42,893 bases of DNA. Origin: Dehalococcoidia bacterium. GTDB taxonomy: Bacteria > Chloroflexota > Dehalococcoidia > UBA2979. Of the stretch, positions 2 to 35,209 are shown piece by piece; the first letter of the stretch is position 1, and every line of letters starts with the position of its first letter. Under the pieces are notes generated by a model. The model was not told where the DNA came from. It saw nothing but the letters and a program-made list of their open reading frames with translations, and searched no databases. The stretch is taken from the NCBI GenBank assembly GCA_019694855.1, contig JAIBBD010000014.1, positions 1 to 42,893 on the forward strand, in the 5' to 3' direction. Position numbers and translations under genes: made by a program.

Positions 2-907
2 GCTGCCTTCGACCGCTTGGCGAGGCAGGACGCCGCCCTCCGCGCGGCCTGCGCGGATCACGAGCGCGACCGCGCCGCATTCGCCGCGGTCCTCGCTGAG
101 CGGACGGCTGCCGGCGACGCTGCCACCCGCTCCGCCGACGAGGCCGAGGCCGCCGCCGGCACCGCGCGCGAGGCCGCCGCTGTCGCCTGCGTGGACTTCG
201 AGGCCGAGTGGCGACGCCAGCTCCCGCCGAGCCGCGCGCCCGATGCCACGGCCGTCGCCGAGCTGATCCAGGCCGCCGGCCTCAAGGCGACCGACCTCGC
301 CGCCGAAGTCGGCCGTGCCGGAGCCACCCTCGAGGCGGCACGAGGCCAGGTGGACCAGGCGACGAGGCTCCTCGAGGACGCTCGCTCTTACCGTCGCACC
401 TCGGACCTCGCCTCCGAGCTCGGCCTGGAGCTGCAGGCGAACCGCTTCGTCGCCTACATCCAGCGCGAGGCGATGCACGTCCTCGCCGCCGATGCCGGCG
501 AGCGTATGCTCCAGCTCTCCCGCGACCGCTACCGCCTCGAGGCGGACGGCGACGAGTTTGTCGTCGTCGACCGCCTCAACGGCGACGAGCGCCGCTCCGT
601 CCGCACCCTCTCCGGCGGCGAGACCTTCCTCGCCAGCCTCGCCCTCGCCCTCGCCCTCTCCGAGCGCCTGCCCGAGCTCTCCGGCCACGGCGGCGCGCTC
701 TCCCTCGACTCCCTCTTCCTCGACGAAGGCTTCGGCTCCCTCGACGCCGAGTCGCTCGACATCGCCATCCAGGGCCTCGAGCTGCTCGCCAGCGGCTCGC
801 GCATGATTGGCGTCATCTCGCACGTCCCCGAGGTCGCCGAGCGCCTCGCCGACCGCATCGAGGTGGTCAAAGTCGGCGGCACGAGCACCGTCCGCGACGG
901 CCGCTAG
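2..907 (+). CDS. sbcC: SbcC/Rad50-type exonuclease ATPase, C-terminal part (5' end outside window)
   Basis: The frame is open from the window edge, so this is the last ~301 residues of a much longer protein. The first ~130 residues are Ala/Glu/Arg-rich, as in the returning arm of a long coiled coil. They are followed by an ABC-type C-terminal ATPase half: signature LSGGETFLASLALALAL, Walker B LFLDEGFGSLD and the H-loop region VISHVPEV. This order, and the DEGFGSLD wording in particular, is typical of SbcC, the ATPase subunit of the SbcCD (Mre11-Rad50 type) nuclease that cuts hairpins and processes double-strand ends. The Walker A half and the sbcD partner should lie to the left, outside the window. 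The stop codon is at 905-907. No second gene is joined to it; the next gene has its own promoter. RecN or another SMC-like ATPase is less likely. Confidence 0.85.
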   Translation, partial: AAFDRLARQDAALRAACADHERDRAAFAAVLAERTAAGDAATRSADEAEAAAGTAREAAAVACVDFEAEWRRQLPPSRAPDATAVAELIQAAGLKATDLAAEVGRAGATLEAARGQVDQATRLLEDARSYRRTSDLASELGLELQANRFVAYIQREAMHVLAADAGERMLQLSRDRYRLEADGDEFVVVDRLNGDERRSVRTLSGGETFLASLALALALSERLPELSGHGGALSLDSLFLDEGFGSLDAESLDIAIQGLELLASGSRMIGVISHVPEVAERLADRIEVVKVGGTSTVRDGR

Positions 908-1000
908 CCAACCCTTCCTACACGCTCCTGCCTCGCAGTGGCCCAAGGGTTCGCCGGTCGGCCCGCACCTGAGCGCATCACACGAGGTACCCGGGGGCTG

Positions 1001-1042
1001 TTGCGCCGTGTCCACGCGTGGCCCTATAGTGCACCATATGGT
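1001..1042 (+). promoter_or_regulatory. Promoter and palindromic operator for the ArsR-SRPBCC pair
   Basis: A -35-like TTGCGC (1001-1006), an 18-nt spacer and a good -10 TATAGT (1025-1030) lie just upstream of the ArsR start codon at 1038. Transcription would therefore start at or next to the ATG, giving a leaderless mRNA. The palindrome ACCATATGGT (1033-1042) overlaps the predicted transcription start and contains the start codon. It is the obvious candidate operator for autorepression by the encoded ArsR-family protein. Site and spacing are seen directly; binding is inferred. Confidence 0.6.
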
Positions 1043-1373
1043 TCAGTATTTAACACGGCTCGACGCGTCCTTCGGCGCTCTCTCCGACGCCACGCGCCGG
1101 GGCGTGCTGGAGCAGCTTGGACGCGCGGATGCTTCCATCACGGACCTTGCCGTGAAGTTCCGCATGACCCGCACGGGCATCAAGAAGCACGTCGCCGTCC
1201 TCGAGCAGGCGGGGCTGGTCACCACTGAAAAGGTCGGGCGTGTGCGGACCTGCCGGCTCGGCCCACGCCGCCTCGAGGAAGAAGCGACCTGGATCGAGCG
1301 GTACCGCCAACTGTGGGAGGCACGCTTCGACGAATTGAACAGAGTCGTCGAGGAACTGAGACGCAGGGAGTGA
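1038..1373 (+). CDS. ArsR-family winged-helix transcriptional regulator
   Basis: A 111-residue DNA-binding protein. The N-terminal half has the ArsR/HTH_20 pattern: LSDATRRGVLEQL, then DLAVKFRMTRTGIKKHVAVL as the helix-turn-helix and recognition helix, then the wing GLVTTEKVGRVRTCRLG. The C-terminal helix contains the W..R..LWEARFDELNRVVEEL stretch common in ArsR proteins paired with SRPBCC genes. I chose ATG 1038. The in-frame GTG at 1029 sits inside the -10 box, and no Shine-Dalgarno precedes either. Four bases separate its stop from the SRPBCC gene, so the two form an operon. There is no metal-binding Cys motif, so a metal sensor is unlikely. In this pairing the ligand is usually unknown. 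Confidence 0.85.
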   Translation: MVQYLTRLDASFGALSDATRRGVLEQLGRADASITDLAVKFRMTRTGIKKHVAVLEQAGLVTTEKVGRVRTCRLGPRRLEEEATWIERYRQLWEARFDELNRVVEELRRRE

Positions 1374-1377
1374 ACTG

Positions 1378-1935
1378 ATGGACACGGGAACGGGGAACGG
1401 GCCCGACGCCATGGCCGGCCGCACGACGGTGGAACGGACGTCGGACCGCGAGCTGGTCGTAACGAGGACCTTCAACGCCCCCGCGCGCTTCGTATTCGAA
1501 GCCTGGACCAGGGCCGAACTGTTCCAGCGGTGGTGGGTGCCGAAGTCGTTTGGGCTGACCCTGCTCTCGTGCGAGCTCAACGTTCGCGTGGGCGGAGGAT
1601 ACCGCCTCCTATTCAGCCACCCGGCGGCCCCGGAACCCGTGGCGTTCCACGGCAGCTACCTCGAAGTGCAACCTCACTCACGCCTCGTCTGGTCGAATGA
1701 CGAGGCCGGCGGCAGCGGGCAGGTCACGACGGTCACCTTCGAGGAGCACGCGGGCCAGACGCTGCTCGTGATGCGTGACCTCTACCCCTCGAAGGAAGCG
1801 CTCGACGAAGCGATTGCCTCCGGCAGCGCGGCCGCCTCCCCGGGCGACCAGAGCGGGATCGAGGAGACCTTCGCTCAGCTCGATCAGCTACTCGACGCTG
1901 ACGGTGGCGAATCCACCGCCGCGCCTTCGTCGTGA
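1378..1935 (+). CDS. SRPBCC (AHSA1-like) domain protein
   Basis: A 185-residue START/Bet v1-like protein of the activator-of-Hsp90-ATPase-homologue type. The recognisable core begins at about residue 24: ELVVTRTFNAPARFVFEAWT, then the W..P..F pattern RWWVPKSFGLTLLSCEL. Later come GGGYRLLF, FHGSYLEVQPHSRLVWSND and the C-terminal TLLVMRDLYPSKEALDEAIASG. The fold forms a hydrophobic ligand pocket; substrate and reaction are unknown. AGGGAG, seven bases before ATG 1378, supports this start, although an internal ATG at 1411 would give a protein beginning nearer the domain. It is co-transcribed with the upstream ArsR gene, so it is probably the regulated effector. Confidence 0.85.
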   Translation: MDTGTGNGPDAMAGRTTVERTSDRELVVTRTFNAPARFVFEAWTRAELFQRWWVPKSFGLTLLSCELNVRVGGGYRLLFSHPAAPEPVAFHGSYLEVQPHSRLVWSNDEAGGSGQVTTVTFEEHAGQTLLVMRDLYPSKEALDEAIASGSAAASPGDQSGIEETFAQLDQLLDADGGESTAAPSS

Positions 1936-1971
1936 CATGCTGGCCCCGCGCTCGAGCGCGCCTCCGCGCGG

Positions 1972-2400
1972 CTAGAACCGCTGCACCCGAGGCGGCCGGA
2001 TCAGCCACGTCGCCACCATCGCGACCGCTGAGATCACGAGGGCTCCCAGTACCGCTGACCAGAACCCGTCGACGTGGAAGTTCAGCTCGAGCTGCCCCGC
2101 CGCCCATGCCGTGATCCCCAGCATCGCCGCGTTGATGACCACCACGAACAGCCCGAACGTCGCGAGGATGAGACAGCACGAAAGCATCGTCGCGAGCGGC
2201 TTCAGCAGCGTATTCACAATCGCGAAGATCGCCGTCCCCGCCACCAGCGATTGCCAGTCGTCGATCGCGATCCCGGGCACGATCTCCGAGGCCAGCCACA
2301 ACCCCGCGAGGTTAATCAGGAACCGCAGCAGCATCGACCGCGGCGACCAGTCCCAGTCGCCGCTCGAAGGCATCCGGATGAACACGCCTCGTTGCCGCAT
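1972..2400 (-). CDS. Phage holin family 4 (Mycobacteriophage-type) small membrane protein
   Basis: A 142-residue integral membrane protein with four predicted helices. These begin at about residues 22 (MLLRFLINLAGLWLA), 50 (LVAGTAIFAIVNTLLKPL), 72 (CCLILATFGLFVVVINAAML) and 108 (FWSAVLGALVISAVAMVATW). The short loop TLLKPLA after helix 2 and the ...NAAMLGITAW motif match the 'phage holin family' membrane proteins found on many bacterial chromosomes outside prophages. Their role is unknown. The ATG at 2400 is preceded by GAGGAG at good spacing. A longer reading from 2472 would overlap the upstream gene and adds nothing recognisable. There is no phage context here. Confidence 0.75.
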   Translation of the reverse strand: MRQRGVFIRMPSSGDWDWSPRSMLLRFLINLAGLWLASEIVPGIAIDDWQSLVAGTAIFAIVNTLLKPLATMLSCCLILATFGLFVVVINAAMLGITAWAAGQLELNFHVDGFWSAVLGALVISAVAMVATWLIRPPRVQRF

Positions 2401-2449
2401 CGCCTGCTCCTCGCTCGCCCCGTCCAAGTCCGCACCAGTCGAGGTCTGA

Positions 2450-3490
2450 CTAGACCGAGCTGACCTCCACAACCCGCCGCTCGTTCCACGAGCGCCACAC
2501 CGCCTCCGTGAACTGCATATATCGCACGCCCGCCTCGAAGTCCGTCAGCTCGACCGACTTCCCCTCCCGGATCGAGTCGATGAAGTCCTGCTCGACGCGC
2601 CAGCTCCCCTCGGTGCCCGCGTCCGGCGGCAGCGGCCGCGCCTCGTCGCCCGCCATCGCCAGTGTCATGGTGTCGTCCAGCGACCAGTGCAGTGTCCCGC
2701 GGCTCCCGTACAGCGAGATACCGCCCGGGTCCCGAGGCGCATGCAGCACCGTGCTCACCCGGTACGTCACCCGCACCCCGCTCGCCATCCGCGCCAGCAC
2801 GGCGATGCCATCCGGGATCTCGATGCGCACCCGCCGCCCGTTGTCCTCGTCGACCCGCTCCTCCACGCCAACCGAGGCGTCGGCCAGCACCGTCCCTGTC
2901 GGCCCGAGCCAGCGCTCGACAGTCTCCGCCAGGATGCCGAGGTTCATCGTGTTCGTCCCGGAGTACTCGCGACGCTCCCGCCAGTGCAGCGGCGCCCCGA
3001 GGTCAAACGCGTTCCCGTTGAGGGACGTCACCTGCACCTCGCGCAGCGTCCCCAGTGCGCCCTCGGCCAGCACCCGACGCATCGTCCGCCACGACCGCAG
3101 GTCGAATGGCGCCGGCACGACCTGCGCCACGAGCTCGGGCCGCGCCTTCGCGGCAGCCAGCATCGCCCGGGCCTCGCTCGCGTCCATCGCCATCCGCGCC
3201 TCGCACAGCACGTGCTTCCCGGCCTCGAGCGCCCGCACCGTGTACTCGCTGTGCCGGTACGGCCACGTCCCAATGCAGACCGCATCGAGGTCATCCGCAC
3301 TGAACAGTTCCTCGGGGTCGGTCGTCACCCGCTCGATGCCAAACGCATCGGCGACCCGATGACCGCTCGCCTCACTGCGGTTGCACACCGCGACGACCTC
3401 CACGCCCGCGATCGCCTGCAGACCGGGGATGTGACGCACTCGCGTGTTGGCGCCCGCCCCGATGACTCCGACTCGGATTGCACCTGCCAC
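2450..3490 (-). CDS. Gfo/Idh/MocA-family NAD(P)-dependent oxidoreductase
   Basis: A 346-residue dehydrogenase. The N-terminal Rossmann fold is clear: IRVGVIGAGANTRVRHIPGL (GxGxxx dinucleotide motif), VEVVAVCNRS, DDLDAVCIGTWPYRHSEYTV and AGKHVLCEARMAM. In the last of these the usual EKP is replaced by EAR, so the catalytic Lys of many family members is missing. The C-terminal half is the alpha/beta substrate domain (LHWRERREYSGTNTMNLGI, VEQDFIDSIREGKSVELTDFEAGVRYMQFTEAVWRSW). The family acts on sugars, inositols or related polyols; the substrate cannot be told from sequence. The start is GTG 3490, with AAAGGG eight bases upstream. The gene is divergent from the kinase-like gene, with 79 bp between them. 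Confidence 0.85.
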   Translation of the reverse strand: MAGAIRVGVIGAGANTRVRHIPGLQAIAGVEVVAVCNRSEASGHRVADAFGIERVTTDPEELFSADDLDAVCIGTWPYRHSEYTVRALEAGKHVLCEARMAMDASEARAMLAAAKARPELVAQVVPAPFDLRSWRTMRRVLAEGALGTLREVQVTSLNGNAFDLGAPLHWRERREYSGTNTMNLGILAETVERWLGPTGTVLADASVGVEERVDEDNGRRVRIEIPDGIAVLARMASGVRVTYRVSTVLHAPRDPGGISLYGSRGTLHWSLDDTMTLAMAGDEARPLPPDAGTEGSWRVEQDFIDSIREGKSVELTDFEAGVRYMQFTEAVWRSWNERRVVEVSSV

Positions 3491-3538
3491 TCGAGCGCCC
3501 TTTCTCCGCGGGAGTTCGCGTAATCAAGTGATCTGATA

Positions 3539-3572
3539 TTGTCCACAGTACGGCGGACGGTGGATAACTGTG
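3539..3572. promoter_or_regulatory. Inverted pair of DnaA-box-like sequences and CACAGT/ACTGTG repeat
   Basis: TTGTCCACA (3539-3547, plus) and TTATCCACC (3559-3567, minus) each differ by one base from the DnaA consensus TTATCCACA. They face each other across 11 bp. The same stretch holds the perfect inverted repeat CACAGT (3545-3550) / ACTGTG (3567-3572), the right arm of which includes the GTG start of the kinase-like gene. It may be a DnaA-responsive control site or a repressor operator. Sequence matches are direct; function is inferred. Confidence 0.4.
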
Positions 3573-5327
3573 ACCCTGAAGGAGCCAGCGATCCTCGAAG
3601 TCGTCGCCCCCACCGCACCCTCCGAGGGCAGCCCCCGCGAGATCCGTCGTCGGTCGCAGCAACTGCTCTATGTCCTCGCGCTCGCCCTCGCCGGCCTCGC
3701 GCTCGCCCATGTCGTCCTCATCGACGCCTTCCGCCGCGAGGCGCCAGACCACTTCCGCGCCCTGCTCGTCATCGTCGAGGTCATCTTCGTCGGCCTCCTG
3801 CTCGCCGCCGCGGCAAACTACTTCATCGCCCTCTCCCGCGAACGCGGCGGCGCGGCGCTCCTCGCCTCGCTGACGGCCGCCTTCGCCGCCCCGCGCGCCG
3901 AGGACGTGCACACGGTGGCCGTCGCGCAACTCGTCGGATCAGGCATGGCCTCCTCGGCGCTCTTTGCCGTGGCCCGCGACCAGGGCCACCGGCTCGAACC
4001 GGTCGCGGCCTGCGGCTACCCAGCCGCCACACAGCTCGAGGAGCGCGACTCCTACGGTCTGGTCCCTCCGCAGCCCGTCGTCCGTCAGCAGGTCGAGCTC
4101 ACCGACCCCTGGCTCGACCCCGTCCGCGAGCGCGTCGGCCGCGAGCCCTGGGTCTCCCGCGTGCCCATCTTGCGCGGCGATGAGCTCCTCGGCCTCGTCA
4201 TCCTCGCCGATCCGCAGCCCGGCCTGATCAGCGACCAGGCACTCCTGCGACGTCTCGGCGACCTGCTCGCCGTCGCCCTGTCGGGCGGCGCCGTGCCCGC
4301 CGCGCGCGCGGCTGGCGTCAGCCAGGCCGACTGGACCCGCCACGAGCTCATCGAGGCCACCGCTGCCGAGTTCGGCCCACCGCTGCTCGCCGTCGAGGCC
4401 TTCGCCTCGGCGGTCGCCGGTGACGCCGACGAAGTCGGCACCATCGAGGACGCACGCCGTCTCTCCACCCTCGCCCTCAGCGTCGAGCGGCTCGGCGTGG
4501 TGATGAGCGACCTCTCCACGCTCGGCGCGGGCCCTGAGGCGCTCGTCGTCGGAGACGCCGAATCGATCGACCTCGCGCCCACCCTCGATGCATCCGTCGA
4601 CGCCCTCGTCCCCGCCTTCACCGCCCGCGAGCAAGGGCTCACGCTGGAGCTGGCCAACGAGCCGCTGGTCGCATTCGTGTCTCCCGACGCCGTGGAGCGG
4701 CTCCTGCTCCACCTGCTTTCAAACGCCAACCGCGCCGCTCCGGACGGCGGCTCCATTGTCGTCCGCGCGGCCGACCTCGGCGGCTCCATTCAGATCGAGG
4801 TCGAGGACTCCGGCCCACCGCCGCCCGGCGATGAGCTGCAGCGCGCCCTCGACCCCTTCTACCGCATCCCCTCCGCGCGAGGAGACCTGCCGGGCGCTGG
4901 CCTCGGTCTCGCCGTCGCCCGCCGCCTCACCGAGTCACAGCGCGGCACCTTCGAGGCTCGCCCGGCCGCCTCCGGTGGGACGAGCTATGTGGTGCAGCTC
5001 CCGACCGAGCCGCCCCCGCCTCCCGAGGAGGTCCCCCCGCCACCCGCCGAGGACGCCGAGGAGTCCGCACCCCTCGAGGACGAGGCGGCCCTCCCGGACG
5101 AGAACGACGACCTCGAGGCGGACGCCGATCTGGAAGAGTGGGAGTCCGACCTCGAACTCGAAGCCGGTGACCCCGACGACGTCGCCGAGCCACAGGCCAC
5201 GAATGATGCCTTCGAGGAGACCCTCCCGGACGAGGACGTGGAACCCGACGACGGCCCTCTTCCAGACACCTCGCTCGAGGAACCGGACGAAGACTCGCAC
5301 GCCGAGGATGCGCGCCCTTCGCGTTGA
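3570..5327 (+). CDS. Histidine-kinase-like membrane protein with GAF-like region, degenerate phosphoacceptor and acidic tail
   Basis: A 585-residue protein. Two membrane helices (about 32-50 and 64-87) are followed by a GAF-like region (about 95-240: VAVAQLVGSGMASSALFAVA, VPILRGDELLGLVILAD). A dimerisation-helix region comes next, then a HATPase_c domain (about 330-478) with an N box LLHLLSNANRAAPDGG and G2 box GAGLGLAVARRL. Where kinases have HExRxPL this protein has AEFGPPL (residues 266-272), so the phosphoacceptor His is Ala. A nearby HEL at 258-260 is out of register. The G1 box reads EDSGPPPPG rather than DxGxG. Residues ~480-585 are a Pro- then Asp/Glu-rich low-complexity tail. I infer a pseudokinase or non-phosphorylating sensor. 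The start is GTG 3570. No response regulator is adjacent; recF follows 47 bp downstream. Confidence 0.75.
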   Translation: MTLKEPAILEVVAPTAPSEGSPREIRRRSQQLLYVLALALAGLALAHVVLIDAFRREAPDHFRALLVIVEVIFVGLLLAAAANYFIALSRERGGAALLASLTAAFAAPRAEDVHTVAVAQLVGSGMASSALFAVARDQGHRLEPVAACGYPAATQLEERDSYGLVPPQPVVRQQVELTDPWLDPVRERVGREPWVSRVPILRGDELLGLVILADPQPGLISDQALLRRLGDLLAVALSGGAVPAARAAGVSQADWTRHELIEATAAEFGPPLLAVEAFASAVAGDADEVGTIEDARRLSTLALSVERLGVVMSDLSTLGAGPEALVVGDAESIDLAPTLDASVDALVPAFTAREQGLTLELANEPLVAFVSPDAVERLLLHLLSNANRAAPDGGSIVVRAADLGGSIQIEVEDSGPPPPGDELQRALDPFYRIPSARGDLPGAGLGLAVARRLTESQRGTFEARPAASGGTSYVVQLPTEPPPPPEEVPPPPAEDAEESAPLEDEAALPDENDDLEADADLEEWESDLELEAGDPDDVAEPQATNDAFEETLPDEDVEPDDGPLPDTSLEEPDEDSHAEDARPSR

Positions 5328-26777: not shown

Positions 26778-27470
26778 TTGAAGGGCGCACGAATCCTCGT
26801 GGTCGACGACGACCCCGCCATCCAGCGGGTGATACGCCGCGCGCTCGAAGCCACCTCATACGAGGTAAGGACCGTTGCCGCCGGCAGCCCCGTCGCGAAT
26901 GAGGTCTCCTCCTTTCACCCCGAGGTGATCCTCCTCGACCTGGTATTGCCCGACGTGGATGGCGTTCGCGTATGCACCACGATCAGGCCGCTGACCGATG
27001 CGTGGATCATCGTACTTAGCGCCGTCGGCGATGATGCCAGGAAGGTCGAGGCGCTCGATAGCGGCGCTGACGACTACGTCACCAAGCCGTTCAGTATCGA
27101 CGAACTCCTTGCTCGTATTCGCGTGTCGCTGCGCCGCCAGAGCCGGAATTTGGAGGAGCCCGCGCTCAACGCCGGCGCGGTCAGCCTTCGCCTCGATACT
27201 CACGAAGTCTTCGTCGCCGGCCGTCCGGTGCAACTAACCCCCACGGAGTTCGCGTTACTCCGCTTGCTGATGGAACAGCAGAACCGCGTCCTCACCCAGC
27301 GCCTGATCCTCCAACGAGTCTGGGGGCCGGAGTACGCGGACGATCACCACATCCTGCGGACGTTCATCCATCAGCTGCGCCGGAAGCTGAGGGAAGCCTC
27401 GCCCGAGGCGGCCAACCTGATCGTCACCGACCCCGGCGTCGGGTACCGAATCTCGGCGCCGATTCCCTGA
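26778..27470 (+). CDS. kdpE: KdpE-type response regulator (OmpR/PhoB family)
   Basis: A 230-residue two-domain regulator. The receiver (about 1-115) has acidic pocket VVDDD, phosphoacceptor in VILLDLVLPDVDGV (Asp ~52), the Ser switch residue in IIVLSAVG, and Lys in YVTKPF. The C-terminal winged helix (about 130-228) has LDTHEVFVAGRPVQLTPTEF, ALLRLLMEQQNRVLTQRLIL, RTFIHQLRRKLR and VGYRISAP, the wording of KdpE proteins. It would activate kdpFABC under K+ limitation. The start is TTG 26778, with GGAG eight bases upstream; the frame stays open to 26463 but without protein character. Unusually it precedes the pump genes, and no kinase core lies nearby to phosphorylate it. Confidence 0.88.
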   Translation: MKGARILVVDDDPAIQRVIRRALEATSYEVRTVAAGSPVANEVSSFHPEVILLDLVLPDVDGVRVCTTIRPLTDAWIIVLSAVGDDARKVEALDSGADDYVTKPFSIDELLARIRVSLRRQSRNLEEPALNAGAVSLRLDTHEVFVAGRPVQLTPTEFALLRLLMEQQNRVLTQRLILQRVWGPEYADDHHILRTFIHQLRRKLREASPEAANLIVTDPGVGYRISAPIP

Positions 27471-27564: not shown

Positions 27565-27951
27565 ATGAACGAGGACATCCTGCTTGTTGACGACGAGCAG
27601 GCGATTCTGACTGTCCTCGAGCGCTCGCTGCGCGCCCACGGGTACACCGTGCACACAGCCGCCGCAGGCCGCGAGGCACTGGCCAGGATGAGTGAGGTTG
27701 TGCCGGGTCTGCTGCTCCTTGACATCAACCTCCCGGACCTCACGGGCTGGGAGGTGCTCCGGCGGCTCTCTCCGACGGATCGTGCTCGCATCCCCGTCGT
27801 CGTGTTGTCCGCTGCACCCCTCTCGCGCCGGCGTCTTGAGGAATTCTGTCCCGCCGGTGTGCTGCTCAAGCCGTTTCCGATCGAGGCATTGCTGCGTCTG
27901 GTGGGCGACGTGCTGGGAGGACGCAGGAAGGAAGAGATGCTGGATGCCTGA
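27565..27951 (+). CDS. Stand-alone response-regulator receiver protein
   Basis: A 128-residue single-domain receiver. All key residues are present: acidic pair in ILLVDDEQAI, phosphoacceptor in LLLLDINLPDLTGW (Asp ~53), Ser in VVVLSAAPL and Lys in LLKPFPIEALL. No output domain follows, so it would act as a phosphate carrier, a sink, or through protein contacts, like CheY/Spo0F-type proteins. It lies between kdpE and kdpF in the same direction, and its last 8 bp overlap the next small gene, so it belongs to the Kdp transcript. It could link an unseen kinase to KdpE. No strong Shine-Dalgarno is seen (AGCG before the ATG). Confidence 0.88.
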   Translation: MNEDILLVDDEQAILTVLERSLRAHGYTVHTAAAGREALARMSEVVPGLLLLDINLPDLTGWEVLRRLSPTDRARIPVVVLSAAPLSRRRLEEFCPAGVLLKPFPIEALLRLVGDVLGGRRKEEMLDA

Positions 27952-28027
27952 CATCGGTTTTCTCACGCTCACCGTCAGCTCGTTTGTCGCATTCGGACTC
28001 CTCGCGGAGTTCCTGAGGAGGGTGTGA
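27944..28027 (+). CDS. Small single-helix membrane peptide (27 residues) of the Kdp operon
   Basis: The frame opens at ATG 27944 with GAAGAG eight bases upstream (GGAAGGAAGAG tract) and ends at TGA 28025-28027. It encodes a peptide starting MPDIGFLTLTVSSFVAFGLL and ending AEFLRRV, that is one hydrophobic helix with a positive C-terminal end. It overlaps the receiver gene by 8 bp and shares one base with the kdpF start (TGATG), which is strong evidence for coupled translation. It differs from KdpF, which is encoded next. Small membrane peptides just upstream of kdpF occur in other bacteria as far as I recall, but I know no assigned function. It may be an extra pump subunit or sensor contact. 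Confidence 0.6.
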   Translation: MPDIGFLTLTVSSFVAFGLLAEFLRRV

Positions 28028-28120: not shown

Positions 28121-29845
28121 ATGACCACCATCGAGTGGGGACAGCTGGCTCTCTACACGGCCGTCCTGCTGCTCGCGGCGAAGCCACTCGGCAGCTATAT
28201 GGCGACTGTGTACGAAGGCCGCCGCACCTGGTTGCATCCAATCGTCCGGCCGCTCGAGGCCGTTACGTACCGCCTGTCCGGCGTGCACGAGGAGTCCGAA
28301 CAGGACTGGCGGCGCTATCTGTTTGCCGTGTTGGCCTTCAACCTGCTCGGGTTCCTCATGCTCTATCTCATCCTGAGAACGCAGGGATCGTTGCCCCTGA
28401 ACCCGCAGCATTTCCCCGCTGTGAAGCCGAGTCTCGCCTTCAATACTGCCGTCAGCTTCGTGACCAACACGAACTGGCAGTCCTACGGCGGCGAGACCAC
28501 GCTGAGCTACTTCTCGCAGATGGTTGGCCTCACGTTCCAGAACTTCGTCTCGGCCGCAGTCGGCATGGCGATCCTGGTCGCCGTCATCCGCGGACTGGCG
28601 CGGCACTCAGCTCATACGCTCGGCAACTTCTGGGTCGATCTCACCCGCAGTGTGCTCTACATCCTGCTCCCGCTCAGCCTGCTCGTCGCGATCTTCCTCG
28701 TATCGCAGGGCGTGATTCAGAATTTCGCGGCCTACAAACAAGTCGCCACGCTCGAGGGACCGACGCAAGTCCTCGGCATGGGTCCGGCCGCGGCACAGCT
28801 CGCCATCAAGCAGTTGGGCACGAACGGTGGCGGCTTCTTCAATGCGAACTCGGCTCACCCATTCGAAAACCCGACCGCCTGGTCGAACCTGGTCGAGATG
28901 CTCGCCATCCTCCTGATCCCGGTCGCTTCCGTCTACATGTACGGCCGCATGGTCGGATCGACGAAACACGGTTGGGTGCTCGTCGGCGCGATGACCGCGC
29001 TCATGCTGCTGGGCGCGGTCATCGTTGGGTACGCCGAGCAGACCGGAAACCCGAACCTCGAGGCGGTGGGCGTTACCCAGGTGGCAGGGAACGGTCAGCT
29101 CGGCGGAAACATGGAGGGGAAAGAGCAACGCTTTGGTATCGGCAACTCAACCATCTGGGCTGTCACGACGACCGATGCCTCAAACGGTTCGGTAAACAGC
29201 ATGCATGACAGCTACACGGCCCTGGGAGGGTTAATGCCCCTGGCCAACATCGCGACAAGTGAGGTCATCTTCGGCGGCGTTGGTTCGGGCATGTACGGCG
29301 CTGTGCTGTACATACTCCTGACCGTGTTCATCGCCGGGCTCATGGTCGGACGGACGCCGGAATACCTCGGGAAGAAGGTCGAGGCGCGCGAGATGAAGTC
29401 CGCGATGGTAGCGCTGCTGATCTTCCCACTGCTGATCCTCGGATGGTCCGCGATTGGGGTCGCCCAGAGCTTTGGCACCGACGCGTTGAACAACGCGGGA
29501 CCGCACGGGCTATCGGAGATCCTCTACGCCTTTAGCTCAGGCGCCGCGAACAACGGCTCTGCCTTTGCTGGTCTGGGAGCAAACACGACGTTCTACAACC
29601 TCGGAATCGGGATCAATATCCTCGTCGGTCGCTTTATCTTCATCGTCGCCGTCATGGTGATCGCCGGGACCATGGTCGAAAAGCGACGCGTCCCGGCCAG
29701 TCTCGGCACCTTCCCGGTGGACGGGGTCACATTCGGGGGCCTCTTCGCGGGCGTCATCCTCATCGTCGGGCTCCTGACGTTCTTCCCTGCCTTCGCGCTC
29801 GGCCCAATCGTCGAGCACCTCATGCGCAGCGGAACACTGTTCTAG
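28121..29845 (+). CDS. kdpA: KdpA, potassium-binding and channel-like subunit of the K+-transporting ATPase
   Basis: A 574-residue membrane protein with ten helices and four pore loops, as in the SKT superfamily. The pore regions are all there: [60 protein letters not shown] and [20 protein letters not shown]. The N-terminus [20 protein letters not shown] and the motif [11 protein letters not shown] are also typical. It selects K+ and passes it through a tunnel to KdpB. Length is normal. Third codon positions here look less C-saturated than in genes left of 25 kb. Part of kdpFABC, followed 22 bp later by kdpB. Confidence 0.96.
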
Positions 29846-31954: not shown

Positions 31955-32551
31955 ATGACTGCCAAGGCCCTCACCCAGGAGCTCAGGCCCCTGCTCGGCA
32001 TCACCGTCACCATGCTGTTGCTCACCACCGCCGTGTACCCCCTGGCCGTCACGGGCGTCGCTCAGACCCTGTTCCACCGGCAGGCCAACGGCAGCATTGT
32101 CGAGGTGAACGGGTCCCCGGTCGGCTCCACGCTGATCGGCCAGATGTTCGAGGGAGACCAGTACTTCCATGGGCGTCCGTCGGCCGCGGGTGACGGCTAC
32201 GATGCGAGCGCGTCCGGCGGGTCGAACCTCGGCCCCACGAGCCAGAAGCTCATCGATCGAGTGACCGAGGATGCGGCGGCCTTCCGGCAGTCGAACAGCC
32301 TGGAGGCGCATGCAACCCTGCCATCCGACGCGGTCACTGCGTCGGGCAGCGGACTGGATCCCCACGTCAGCCCTGCCACGGCGCGCCTCCAGGTTGAGCG
32401 TGTGGCGCACGCCCGACGGGTGACCGAAGACCAGGTCCGCGAACTCGTGGACGAGTTCACCGAGGGTCGCCAACTGGTGCTCATCGGCGAGCCTCGCGTG
32501 AACGTGCTGAAACTCAACATTGCCCTCGATGAGCGGTTCCCACTCCCGTAG
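31955..32551 (+). CDS. kdpC: KdpC subunit of the K+-transporting ATPase
   Basis: A 198-residue protein with one N-terminal membrane helix (about 10-32: LRPLLGITVTMLLLTTAVYP) and a periplasmic-side domain. Family wording is clear: QTLFHRQANGSIVEVNGSPV, GSTLIGQMFEGDQYFHGRPS, GYDASASGGSNLGPTSQKLI and DAVTASGSGLDPHVSPATAR. The terminal block is RVAHARRVTEDQVRELVDEF. KdpC supports assembly and ATP use of KdpB. GGAGGA lies just before the ATG, 11 bp after the kdpB stop. Full length. Confidence 0.96.
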   Translation: MTAKALTQELRPLLGITVTMLLLTTAVYPLAVTGVAQTLFHRQANGSIVEVNGSPVGSTLIGQMFEGDQYFHGRPSAAGDGYDASASGGSNLGPTSQKLIDRVTEDAAAFRQSNSLEAHATLPSDAVTASGSGLDPHVSPATARLQVERVAHARRVTEDQVRELVDEFTEGRQLVLIGEPRVNVLKLNIALDERFPLP

Positions 32552-32589: not shown

Positions 32590-33453
32590 ATGATCTGGGA
32601 CAATGGGACTACCGCCGCGGGGAAGAGTCGTGAGAATGGTCAGTTGGAACCGGAGACGACCGAGGCGGTCGCGATCCTCAAGCGCTGGTTCCTTAGTCGC
32701 TGGTCAGGGTTGCTGGCCGTAAGCATCGCGGCAGCTGTCTTCACAGCCATCTTTACGTCGTTCCAGGATGAGCGACGCCTTCCCGATGTAGCCATGCTGT
32801 ACCTGGCGGTCACGCTGATCTCCGCGGCGACGTGGGGCTACGCGGTGGGCGCGTTCAGCGCGCTTTTGACAAACCTCTTCCTCAACTACTTCTTCATTCC
32901 ACCGTTGCATGTGTTCAACGTCGCTGACCGGGGCAACGCGGGCGGGCTTGTCCTCTTCTTTCTGGTGGCCGCGCTGGGCGCGTCCCTCGTGTCCCGAATG
33001 CGAGACGTCGCGCGACACCTCCAAACCGCGTGCGAGGAGAACCTGACCCTGTCGGAGCTCATTCATGCAGTGGCCGCCTCCGCACCCGGCGCGGAACCCT
33101 CCGCGTTCTGCTCCTCGGCCGCTCGACGTATGGGAGCCGCCCGAGTGGAACTCATCGAGCATCGAGACGGCTGGGTGGTGCTCGCGGGAAGCGCCCGGGC
33201 GGGACAGTACCTCGATGAGCGCGAATCGGCCGCTATCGCTCAACTCGCAGATCGGCTCAGCTCAGGCCAACCGTCGACCCTCAAGCGGATCGACGATCGC
33301 TTCGTTGTCCCGTTGCCCGGTTACACTGCGCCTGCCGTGCTGGTGATCTCAGGGATGGACGGGGCGCTCAGATCTGAGGACGTCGACCGCTTCCTGCGCA
33401 CCGTCGCGGACCAGGCAACGATTGCGATCCGACTCGGAAGGCGCGCAGCGTGA
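32590..33453 (+). CDS. KdpD middle part as a separate protein (DUF4118 membrane domain + GAF)
   Basis: A 287-residue protein matching only the central portion of a normal KdpD. Four closely spaced helices lie at about 38-58, 68-86, 88-108 and 117-135. They include the KdpD/DUF4118 signature LFLNYFFIPPLHVFNVADRG. A helix (MRDVARHLQTACEENLTLSE) then leads to a GAF-like domain (about 155-285) ending FLRTVADQATIAIRLGRRAA, exactly where KdpD proteins continue into HisKA. No His-box, N-box or G-box follows; the frame stops at 33453. GGAGG precedes ATG 32590. It comes 38 bp after kdpC and before the N-terminal KdpD gene, so domain order is reversed relative to KdpD. Presumably it senses K+ or turgor at the membrane. 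Confidence 0.8.
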   Translation: MIWDNGTTAAGKSRENGQLEPETTEAVAILKRWFLSRWSGLLAVSIAAAVFTAIFTSFQDERRLPDVAMLYLAVTLISAATWGYAVGAFSALLTNLFLNYFFIPPLHVFNVADRGNAGGLVLFFLVAALGASLVSRMRDVARHLQTACEENLTLSELIHAVAASAPGAEPSAFCSSAARRMGAARVELIEHRDGWVVLAGSARAGQYLDERESAAIAQLADRLSSGQPSTLKRIDDRFVVPLPGYTAPAVLVISGMDGALRSEDVDRFLRTVADQATIAIRLGRRAA

Positions 33454-33529
33454 TCCGCTCCCTCCCGGCGGATCGGGACATCACGGGCGTTGGCGCCGCG
33501 CGGCGCGGGTCGATCGCACCAGAAACACC

Positions 33530-34654
33530 ATGACTGGCTCCCACGAACGCCCAGACGCGGACGCGCTGCTGAGGAAACTCGAACGCGAAGAGACCGCAGC
33601 AACCCGCGGTCGGCTTCGCATCTACCTCGGCGCCGCGCCCGGCGTCGGCAAGACCTACGCGATGCTGCACGAGGGCAAGCGGCGGGCGCAGCGGGGCACG
33701 GACGTCGTCGTTGGCTTTGCGGAGACTTACGGTCGGCCACTGACCGTGGACGCACTCACCGGCCTCGAGGTGATTCCACGGCGGAAAGTCGACTATCGGG
33801 GCGTGACGCTCGAGGAGATGGACGTCGAGGCGCTCATCGCGCGCCACCCGCAAGTCGCGCTCGTTGACGAGCTCGCCCACACGAATGCGCCCGGTTCGAA
33901 ACACGAGAAACGATGGCAGGACGTACAGGATATTCAGGCGGCCGGTATCACGGTCATCTCGACCCTCAACATCCAGCACCTCGAAAGCCTGAACGATGTC
34001 GTAGCTGGCATCACCGGCATCCACGTCCGCGAAACGGTACCCGATTCCATCATCGATGATGCTGACGAGATCGAACTCGTCGATGTCTCGGCGCAGGCGC
34101 TCCGCTCCCGCATGCAGCACGGCAACATCTACCCGCCCGAGCAAGCCCAGCGGGCCCTCGATGGCTTCTTTCGAGAAAGCAATTTGACCGCATTGCGGGA
34201 GCTGGTCCTTCGACGCGTCGCCGACCAGGTCGAACACGAGCTCGACGAGTACATGCACGAACACGCGCTCGATAGCTGGGAGGCGACGGAACGGGTGCTC
34301 GTGCTGCTCGACAACATCGAAGGCTCGGAAGTAGCGGTTCGCCGTGCGTGGCGCCTGGCAAGCGCCTTCGACGGAGAACTGTTCGTCGCCTACCCGGCGG
34401 CGTCCATCCGCCAGCAGGGGATGACGCGCATGCTTGAGGTGGCGACGGACCTCAACGCCACGGTCAGGGAAATCCCCGGGGACCACCCGGCGGCAGAGCT
34501 GGGCGATCTCATCCGGACCCAGAAAGTGAGTCACCTCGTGCTCGTCGCGAACCCGCGTCGGACGCTCCTGGGTCTCCGCAGGAAGGACCTCGTCGACGAC
34601 ATGCTGGAGCAGACGCCGAACGTGAGTATCCACCTCGTGAGCCAGGCATCGTAG
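33530..34654 (+). CDS. kdpD: KdpD N-terminal part as a separate protein (KdpD domain + USP domain)
   Basis: A 374-residue soluble protein equal to the cytoplasmic N-terminal part of KdpD. The KdpD domain (about 28-235) has Walker A YLGAAPGVGKTYAML (32-46), VVVGFAETYGRP, Walker B VALVDELAHTNAPGS (109-123) and KRWQDVQDIQAAGITVISTL. It continues with NIQHLESLNDVV and RETVPDSIIDDADEIELVD. A universal-stress-protein domain follows from about 240 (ERVLVLLDNIEGSEVAVRRA) and ends near the stop. The frame ends where the membrane domain should begin. Short KdpD forms of this extent are known, for example in Anabaena. ATG 33530 is my start; the Shine-Dalgarno is weak, and earlier in-frame starts overlap the preceding gene. 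It probably partners the DUF4118-GAF protein. Confidence 0.85.
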   Translation: MTGSHERPDADALLRKLEREETAATRGRLRIYLGAAPGVGKTYAMLHEGKRRAQRGTDVVVGFAETYGRPLTVDALTGLEVIPRRKVDYRGVTLEEMDVEALIARHPQVALVDELAHTNAPGSKHEKRWQDVQDIQAAGITVISTLNIQHLESLNDVVAGITGIHVRETVPDSIIDDADEIELVDVSAQALRSRMQHGNIYPPEQAQRALDGFFRESNLTALRELVLRRVADQVEHELDEYMHEHALDSWEATERVLVLLDNIEGSEVAVRRAWRLASAFDGELFVAYPAASIRQQGMTRMLEVATDLNATVREIPGDHPAAELGDLIRTQKVSHLVLVANPRRTLLGLRRKDLVDDMLEQTPNVSIHLVSQAS

Positions 34655-34804: not shown

Positions 34805-34880
34805 GCGCCGGTAGCTCAGTGGATAGAGCATCAGTCTTCGGAACTGAGGGTCGGGGGTTCGAATCCCTCCCGGCGCGCCA
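34805..34880 (+). tRNA. tRNA-Arg (anticodon TCG)
   Basis: A full 76-nt cloverleaf. The acceptor stem GCGCCGG/CCGGCGC (34805-34811/34870-34876) is perfect. The D stem is GCTC/GAGC, and the anticodon stem is TCAGT/ACTGA (34831-34835/34843-34847) with loop CTTCGGA, so the anticodon is TCG (34838-34840), reading CGA and probably other CGN codons. The T arm has loop TTCGAAT and one G-T pair. The discriminator is G, and CCA is encoded (34878-34880). The last 12 nt begin the 169-bp tandem repeat. Confidence 0.96.
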
Positions 34881-35209
34881 GCCCCCCTGCCTCGGCGGAC
34901 ACCGTGCAGTCCCGCCGCTCCGTGACCAAACCTGCGTGCGGTGTGAAACGACGAGGATGCTCGTCCTGACTACCCACGCACGCCTTCGTCGAGCAGATCG
35001 TCGAGGTCGCCGCGTCCTCCCCGGGTACACACCTCGGCCCGGCGCGCCAGCCCCCCTGCCTCGGCGGACACCGTGCAGTCCCGCCGCTCCGTGACCAAAC
35101 CTGCGTGCGGTGTGAAACGACGAGGATGCTCGTCCTGACTACCCACGCACGCCTTCGTCGAGCAGATCGTCGAGGTCGCCGCGTCCTCCCCGGGTACACA
35201 CCTCGGCCC
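34869..35209. repeat. Perfect 169-bp tandem direct repeat starting in the tRNA-Arg 3' end
   Basis: Copy 1 (34869-35037) and copy 2 (35038-35206) are identical by eye over all 169 bp, with three more matching bases (35207-35209). The unit starts with the last 12 nt of the tRNA gene (CCCGGCGCGCCA). It also contains a small hairpin GACGAG-GATG-CTCGTC and two TCGTCGAG direct repeats. The period is not a multiple of three, and no gene is supported in the unit. It may be a recent tandem duplication, an attachment-site scar, or an assembly artefact. Confidence 0.9.

What the first reader, a model, noticed from the sequence alone, without database searches (positions are those of the whole stretch)
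32590..34654. KdpD is split, out of order and lacks its kinase core
A normal KdpD reads KdpD-USP-DUF4118-GAF-HisKA-HATPase. Here the DUF4118+GAF middle is the first gene (32590-33453). The KdpD+USP N-terminal part is the second (33530-34654). Each stops at a clean domain border with its own start, and no histidine kinase motif follows either. Short N-terminal KdpD proteins are known, but I know of no described system with the membrane/GAF part as a separate upstream gene. The two could form a non-kinase K+/turgor sensor acting directly on KdpE, on the lone receiver or on the pump.
Basis: partly seen in the sequence, partly recalled or inferred. Interest (0 to 1): 0.78.

Follow-up and report, generated by a model that had tools for sequence, protein, structure and literature searches.

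The report
Two-piece potassium-pump regulator without kinase core
An uncultured Chloroflexota bacterium carries the known short form of the potassium-pump regulator KdpD plus an unusual extra gene, a kinase-less copy of the membrane sensor half, wedged between the pump genes and that regulator; the seemingly missing histidine kinase is elsewhere in the genome, so this is a new variant of a known arrangement rather than a new kind of system.

Summary
In detail: 32590-33453 encodes an intact 287-aa DUF4118+GAF membrane protein (here 'KdpM') and 33530-34654 a 374-aa KdpD+USP protein ('KdpN'). Neither has a histidine-kinase core; no frameshift joins them. 'KdpD split and kinase lost' is only partly right. 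Short KdpD/USP is common in this class (Dehalococcoidia) and described; in E. coli its domain was shown to be a serine kinase acting on KdpB Ser162. KdpN keeps the catalytic residues (W39 is Tyr) and the pump keeps the target serine. Relatives carry a separate DUF4118-GAF histidine kinase before kdpE; in this genome such a kinase lies on contig C98 beside a second KdpE and a KimA K+ importer. The unusual part is KdpM: a diverged relative of those kinases, cut just after the GAF domain, between kdpC and kdpN. No counterpart was found in 393 class genomes, though two have a fused KdpD-USP-TM-GAF without kinase (same domain set, one chain). Likeliest: KdpN is a serine-kinase brake on the pump, KdpM its membrane sensor or dock, and KdpE is served in trans by the C98 kinase. 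KdpM's role is inferred; one MAG only. New variant of a known kind.

The parts
26778..27470 (+). KdpE, OmpR-type response regulator (TTG start inferred); phospho-acceptor Asp and Lys present
   Evidence: Response_reg + Trans_reg_C; alignment with other KdpEs
27565..27951 (+). Lone receiver (REC) protein, a usual member of the class's split-type kdp operons
   Evidence: Response_reg; same gene in the same place in G001, G312, G338, G174, G116, G148, G097, G091, G135
27944..28027 (+). Putative KdpF, 27-aa hydrophobic peptide
   Evidence: Translation; position before kdpA; inferred
28121..29845 (+). KdpA (start inferred)
   Evidence: PF03814, 802 bits
29868..31943 (+). KdpB with TGES motif; Ser173 aligns with E. 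coli Ser162
   Evidence: 61.5% identity to E. coli KdpB; S162, D307, D583, K586 conserved
31955..32551 (+). KdpC
   Evidence: PF02669, 247 bits; TIGR00681 over cut-off
32590..33453 (+). 'KdpM': DUF4118 (4 TM) + GAF, no kinase core; ends just before the signalling helix/DHp of related kinases; GGAGG upstream of the ATG
   Evidence: sequence
33530..34654 (+). 'KdpN': short KdpD (KdpD domain with G-x5-GKT Walker A and Walker B DE, plus USP domain), no TM helix
   Evidence: PF02702 320 bits, NF038185 best NCBIfam hit; E. coli KdpD alignment; PDB 2r8r match; no TM; model pLDDT 85

Best explanation
This is a Dehalococcoidia kdp operon of the known split type with one novelty. KdpN is the short KdpD: by homology an atypical serine kinase that phosphorylates Ser173 in the TGES motif of KdpB and shuts the pump when K+ is plentiful. 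KdpM is a relative of the class's separate DUF4118-GAF histidine kinases that has lost DHp and CA and now sits between kdpC and kdpN. It most likely acts as a membrane-bound K+/turgor-sensing or docking subunit that controls KdpN's action on the pump, so that the pair works as a two-chain version of the kinase-less KdpD-USP-TM-GAF proteins found fused in the same class. Transcriptional control through KdpE is probably supplied in trans by the full histidine kinase on contig C98, which sits with a KdpE paralogue and a KimA K+ importer. Shown: gene anatomy, conserved residues, existence of the C98 kinase, rarity of KdpM. Inferred: serine-kinase activity here, KdpM-KdpN interaction, signalling from the C98 kinase to the window KdpE.
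For: KdpN keeps G-x5-GKT, D109/E110 (D113/E114) and R190 (R194), with W39 changed to Y43; KdpB keeps Ser162 (S173). E. coli KdpD and short DgKdpD phosphorylate KdpB, and in E. coli KdpD the serine-kinase activity responds to K+ in a membrane environment (PMC11018627). KdpM lies 38 bp after kdpC and 76 bp before kdpN on the same strand, with a Shine-Dalgarno-like GGAGG. KdpM keeps a well-predicted 4-TM + GAF fold and an open frame despite a long branch. KdpM groups with the C98 kinase and the kdp-operon kinases of G312 and G338 (91/94). G271 (657 aa, whole within its contig) and G391 (about 660 aa) have fused KdpD-USP-TM-GAF with no kinase, ending at the same GAF border. The C98 kinase and its response regulator, 66% identical to window KdpE, are in the same bin.
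Against: No direct evidence that KdpM touches KdpN. KdpM descends from split kinases, whose TM/GAF part is not fused to a KdpD domain, so its ancestral partner was a kinase dimer. In short KdpDs the signal can be c-di-AMP with no membrane part, and this genome has a cdaA-type diadenylate cyclase, so KdpN may not need KdpM. KdpM is known from one MAG with no genus mate held, so its conservation cannot be shown; its branch is long (1.6).
Confidence: 0.45

Rival explanations
1. KdpM modulates the histidine kinase, not KdpN: as a kinase-less paralogue it pairs with the C98 kinase through TM/GAF and tunes or blocks its signalling to KdpE.
For: KdpM's nearest relatives are the split histidine kinases, including C98 (34% identity). 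The operon's KdpE has no kinase beside it, and the only other DUF4118 protein in the genome is the C98 kinase.
Against: Only 34% identity, so pairing is doubtful. KdpM ends before the signalling helix and DHp that normally dimerise. It sits next to kdpN and away from the kinase.
Confidence: 0.22
2. KdpM is an idle or decaying leftover of a duplicated kinase gene; KdpN alone works as the c-di-AMP-controlled brake known from DgKdpD.
For: Long branch; GC3 75.7% against 80-85% in most operon genes, 73% in the GAF part; single MAG; relatives run the same operon without KdpM; diadenylate cyclase present.
Against: Intact start, GGAGG and 287 codons after a divergence at which neutral drift leaves no stop in about 5% of simulations; confident fold; four TM helices kept. 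KdpN's USP does not carry the Firmicutes c-di-AMP motif, although that motif was defined in Firmicutes only.
Confidence: 0.25
3. Assembly or binning artefact: a frameshifted or chimaeric contig broke a normal KdpD or a normal kinase gene.
For: MAG in 130 contigs; kinase genes that look frameshifted occur in other MAGs (L064, L112).
Against: No kinase sequence in any frame near either gene; GAF before KdpD cannot arise from a frameshift in a normal KdpD; KdpM is flanked by kdpC and kdpN well inside a 42.9-kb contig; short KdpD is common in the class.
Confidence: 0.05

Closest known systems
Split KdpD: KdpD/Usp serine kinase + separate TM/GAF/DHpCA histidine kinase (PMC11018627)
   Same: KdpN has the KdpD/Usp architecture; a TM/GAF/DHpCA kinase exists in the genome (C98); KdpE present
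   Different: The kinase lies outside the kdp operon, beside KimA, and an additional kinase-less TM/GAF gene lies between kdpC and kdpN
Kinase-less KdpD with truncated DHpCA (Campylobacterota and Archaea in PMC11018627; G271 and G391 here)
   Same: Same domain set: KdpD, USP, TM (DUF4118), GAF, no kinase; G271 ends at the same border
   Different: There one polypeptide in normal order; here two genes in reversed order, and the TM/GAF part groups with the split kinases, not with full-length KdpD
NF038185 KdpD_non_kinase, and DgKdpD of Deinococcus geothermalis (PMC11018627)
   Same: KdpN: KdpD + USP only, about 370 aa
   Different: 357 bits against a 550-bit cut-off, so a relative rather than a formal member of NF038185; a membrane partner gene next door
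Stand-alone DUF4118(+GAF) proteins of G637, another Chloroflexota family (L136, L137)
   Same: DUF4118 followed by a weak or unscored GAF, no kinase core, 327 and 354 aa
   Different: Not near kdp genes; separate branch of the tree

Membership tests
KdpD-domain atypical serine kinase (KdpN) | Walker A G-x5-GKT, Walker B DE, adenine-coordinating W/R pair | tested here: met
   GAAPGVGKT, D113/E114, R194 conserved; W39 replaced by Tyr43, aromatic kept; that Tyr is nearly invariant in the 20 short KdpDs aligned
KdpD-domain atypical serine kinase (KdpN) | Target serine in the KdpB TGES motif | tested here: met
   KdpB Ser173 aligns with E. coli Ser162
KdpD-domain atypical serine kinase (KdpN) | Phosphorylates KdpB | not testable with these tools
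   Needs a biochemical assay
NF038185 KdpD_non_kinase | Score at or over the curated cut-off (550 bits) | tested here: not met
   356.6 bits over nearly the whole model (7-372 of 373); best NCBIfam hit
KdpD sensor histidine kinase, full length | KdpD-USP-TM-GAF-DHp-CA in one chain with phospho-accepting His | tested here: not met
   No HisKA/HATPase in either protein or nearby; only one PF02702 match in the genome
Split KdpD with separate TM/GAF/DHpCA kinase | A DUF4118/GAF/DHpCA kinase in the genome besides KdpD/Usp | tested here: met
   C98:259-1761: DUF4118 76, HisKA 55, HATPase_c 96 bits; His aligned with E. coli H673
Split KdpD with separate TM/GAF/DHpCA kinase | That kinase phosphorylates the operon's KdpE | not testable with these tools
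   Only indirect: no kinase beside window KdpE; the C98 regulator is 66% identical to it
c-di-AMP-binding KdpD USP (Firmicutes type) | (A/G/C)XSXSX2N(Y/F) motif | tested here: not met
   KdpN reads LLDNIEGSE...FVAY in that region (by eye). Binding by non-Firmicute USPs is not excluded; a diadenylate cyclase is present
DUF4118 + GAF of KdpD-type sensors (KdpM) | Four-TM DUF4118 over cut-off and GAF fold | tested here: met
   66.5 bits against 28.4; GAF by alignment and predicted model, not by Pfam score

The most novel reading that the evidence does not exclude
KdpM and KdpN form a two-chain K+ sensor: the membrane/GAF half of a former histidine kinase has been recruited as a sensor that controls a serine kinase acting on the KdpB pump, instead of a histidine/aspartate relay.
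Probability: 0.33. Interest if true: 0.55.

Novelty: new variant of a known kind. Interest (0 to 1): 0.36.

Why it matters
Apart from c-di-AMP, it is open how K+ status reaches the serine-kinase activity of short, membrane-less KdpD proteins. A genome in which a kinase-free membrane/GAF sensor is a separate gene next to short KdpD offers a separable two-protein test of whether TM/GAF alone can control that activity. It also shows a histidine-kinase sensor half that appears to be kept without its kinase.

Tried and rejected
Frameshift or join of the two genes: rejected (no kinase remnant, order reversed). Full-length kdpD elsewhere: rejected within the held assembly (one PF02702 hit). Class-wide conserved KdpM gene: rejected (none other in 393 genomes). 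KdpM in named genomes: the genome-contig scan with KdpM found no relative; the scan with KdpN gave 20 loci, none with a KdpM-like gene at that place. The gap of about 410 bp between kdpC and short KdpD in f16 genomes was checked as a possible DUF4118 remnant: it holds instead an ORF of about 130 aa that looks like a degenerate receiver (by eye). Short DUF4118 frames elsewhere turned out to be kinases without a GAF (G106, G570), contig ends (G035, G613), an apparent frameshifted kinase (G097) or DUF4118-only genes (f12). Literature searches found no description of a stand-alone DUF4118-GAF gene beside short KdpD; only open-licence papers are held, so absence there is weak evidence.

Full report
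What is there. On the + strand the window holds one potassium-pump operon: KdpE (26778-27470), a lone receiver (27565-27951), a putative KdpF (27944-28027), KdpA, KdpB, KdpC, then the two genes of the finding. The first, 32590-33453, I call KdpM: DUF4118 (four TM helices) plus GAF, 287 aa. The second, 33530-34654, I call KdpN: KdpD domain plus USP, 374 aa. Pfam does not score the GAF, but it aligns to the GAF region of a real kinase in the same genome and is predicted to fold as one (mean pLDDT 86; GAF domains prominent among the top Foldseek hits).

No kinase core next door and no frameshift. tblastn with E. coli KdpD and three Chloroflexota kinases finds no DHp/CA sequence near either gene; the only kinase hit in the window is another one near 4.2-5.0 kb. 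KdpM stops at the end of the GAF, where the kinases continue into the signalling helix and DHp. A frameshift in a normal KdpD could not place GAF before the KdpD domain.

The genome does own a KdpD-type histidine kinase. The MAG (2.46 Mb, 130 contigs, 96.5% complete) has one PF02702 match, the window's, and two DUF4118 matches: KdpM, and C98:259-1761, a 500-aa DUF4118-GAF-HisKA-HATPase kinase. Its His aligns with E. coli H673. It is followed by a response regulator 66% identical to the window KdpE and a KimA-type K+ importer (PDB 6s3k, E 3e-95). That this kinase also serves the window KdpE is inference, and that C98 belongs to the same organism rests on binning.

What relatives look like. The nearest named relative is a Dehalococcoidia MAG (L102), and the survey drew 393 genomes of the window's class. 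Thirty-one have PF02702 over its cut-off, and about half of those carrying a KdpD have the short KdpD/USP form (my count from open-frame lengths and gene models). The usual order for these is kinase (DUF4118-GAF-HisKA-HATPase) - KdpE - lone REC - kdpABC - KdpD/USP, seen in G312, G174, G116, G148 and G097 (kinase gene apparently frameshifted), and in G001 of the same family with the KdpD gene cut by contig ends. So a short KdpD and a lone receiver are ordinary here. kdpC and KdpD/USP are adjacent or nearly so in most; four f16 genomes have about 410 bp between them, holding a small receiver-like ORF. None has a DUF4118-GAF gene there, and the DUF4118 survey of the same genomes gave no other kinase-less copy next to kdp. 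In a 400-genome phylum draw (match list truncated) two kinase-less DUF4118(-GAF) proteins turned up in G637, away from kdp genes.

Origin of KdpM. In a tree of DUF4118-GAF regions KdpM groups with the C98 kinase and the kdp-operon kinases of G312 and G338 (support 91/94, not starred), on a long branch of 1.6. It therefore looks like a diverged copy of a split-type kinase that lost its catalytic half, not the middle of a former full-length KdpD. The long branch makes the exact placement uncertain. It kept an open frame: drift from the C98 kinase to the same identity leaves no stop in about 5% of simulations, without counting indels. That is moderate evidence for selection, not proof.

How it most likely works. 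[quoted passage not shown] coli KdpD was shown to be an atypical serine kinase that phosphorylates KdpB Ser162 and inhibits the pump at high K+; a short KdpD from D. geothermalis does the same and is stimulated by c-di-AMP; split serine-kinase/histidine-kinase versions and kinase-less versions were catalogued (PMC11018627). KdpN keeps the Walker motifs and R190, with Tyr for W39, and KdpB keeps the serine. So 'non-kinase' probably means only 'not a histidine kinase'. For KdpM the best guess is a membrane sensor or dock for KdpN. The strongest parallel is in the same class: G271 and G391 have a single KdpD-USP-TM-GAF chain with no kinase (in G271 directly after kdpC and ending at the same border). 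The window has the same domain set as two genes in reversed order. Against this, KdpM's ancestry points to kinases as partners, and KdpN could work alone under c-di-AMP: a cdaA-type cyclase is present, although the Firmicutes c-di-AMP motif is absent from KdpN's USP.

Verdict. Observation confirmed; interpretation partly supported. The arrangement is a new variant of the described split/kinase-less KdpD family. The stand-alone KdpM gene is rare and worth a test, but it rests on one MAG, with no close relatives held and no functional evidence.

Noticed in passing
G000 contig C98 (L052) 259-4573; also L138, L123, L105, L132, L139, L088, L011, L085, L109, L111: A DUF4118 histidine kinase, an OmpR-type regulator and a KimA-type K+ importer lie together repeatedly in Chloroflexota, and KimA also lies near Acidobacteriota kdp loci (tblastn), suggesting that KdpD-type kinases also control KimA. 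G000 has a second KimA at C121:27012-29021, 68% identical.
   Followed up: partly
window 34869-35206: Perfect 2 x 169-bp tandem repeat that begins inside the 3' end of tRNA-Arg(TCG) at 34805-34880; could be an integration scar or an assembly duplication.
   Followed up: no
L061 3846-4262, L062 8744-9160, L065 681-1091, L067 8479-8889: In four genomes of one family (f16) an ORF of about 130 aa resembling a degenerate receiver lies between kdpC and short KdpD, the same slot as KdpM.
   Followed up: partly
L124 4996-5331, L125 5496-5831, L126 4948-5346: 111-132 aa DUF4118-only membrane proteins away from kdp genes in family f12.
   Followed up: no
L071 1031-3004 (G271), L049/L073 (G391): Fused KdpD-USP-TM-GAF of about 660 aa without kinase core; in G271 an AmtB-like ORF follows (by eye).
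   Followed up: partly
L064 792-2395, L112 1621-2802: DUF4118 kinase genes next to kdp operons broken into two overlapping or adjacent frames, likely frameshifts.
   Followed up: no
window 3570-5327: Another histidine kinase gene in the window, without a DUF4118 match.
   Followed up: no
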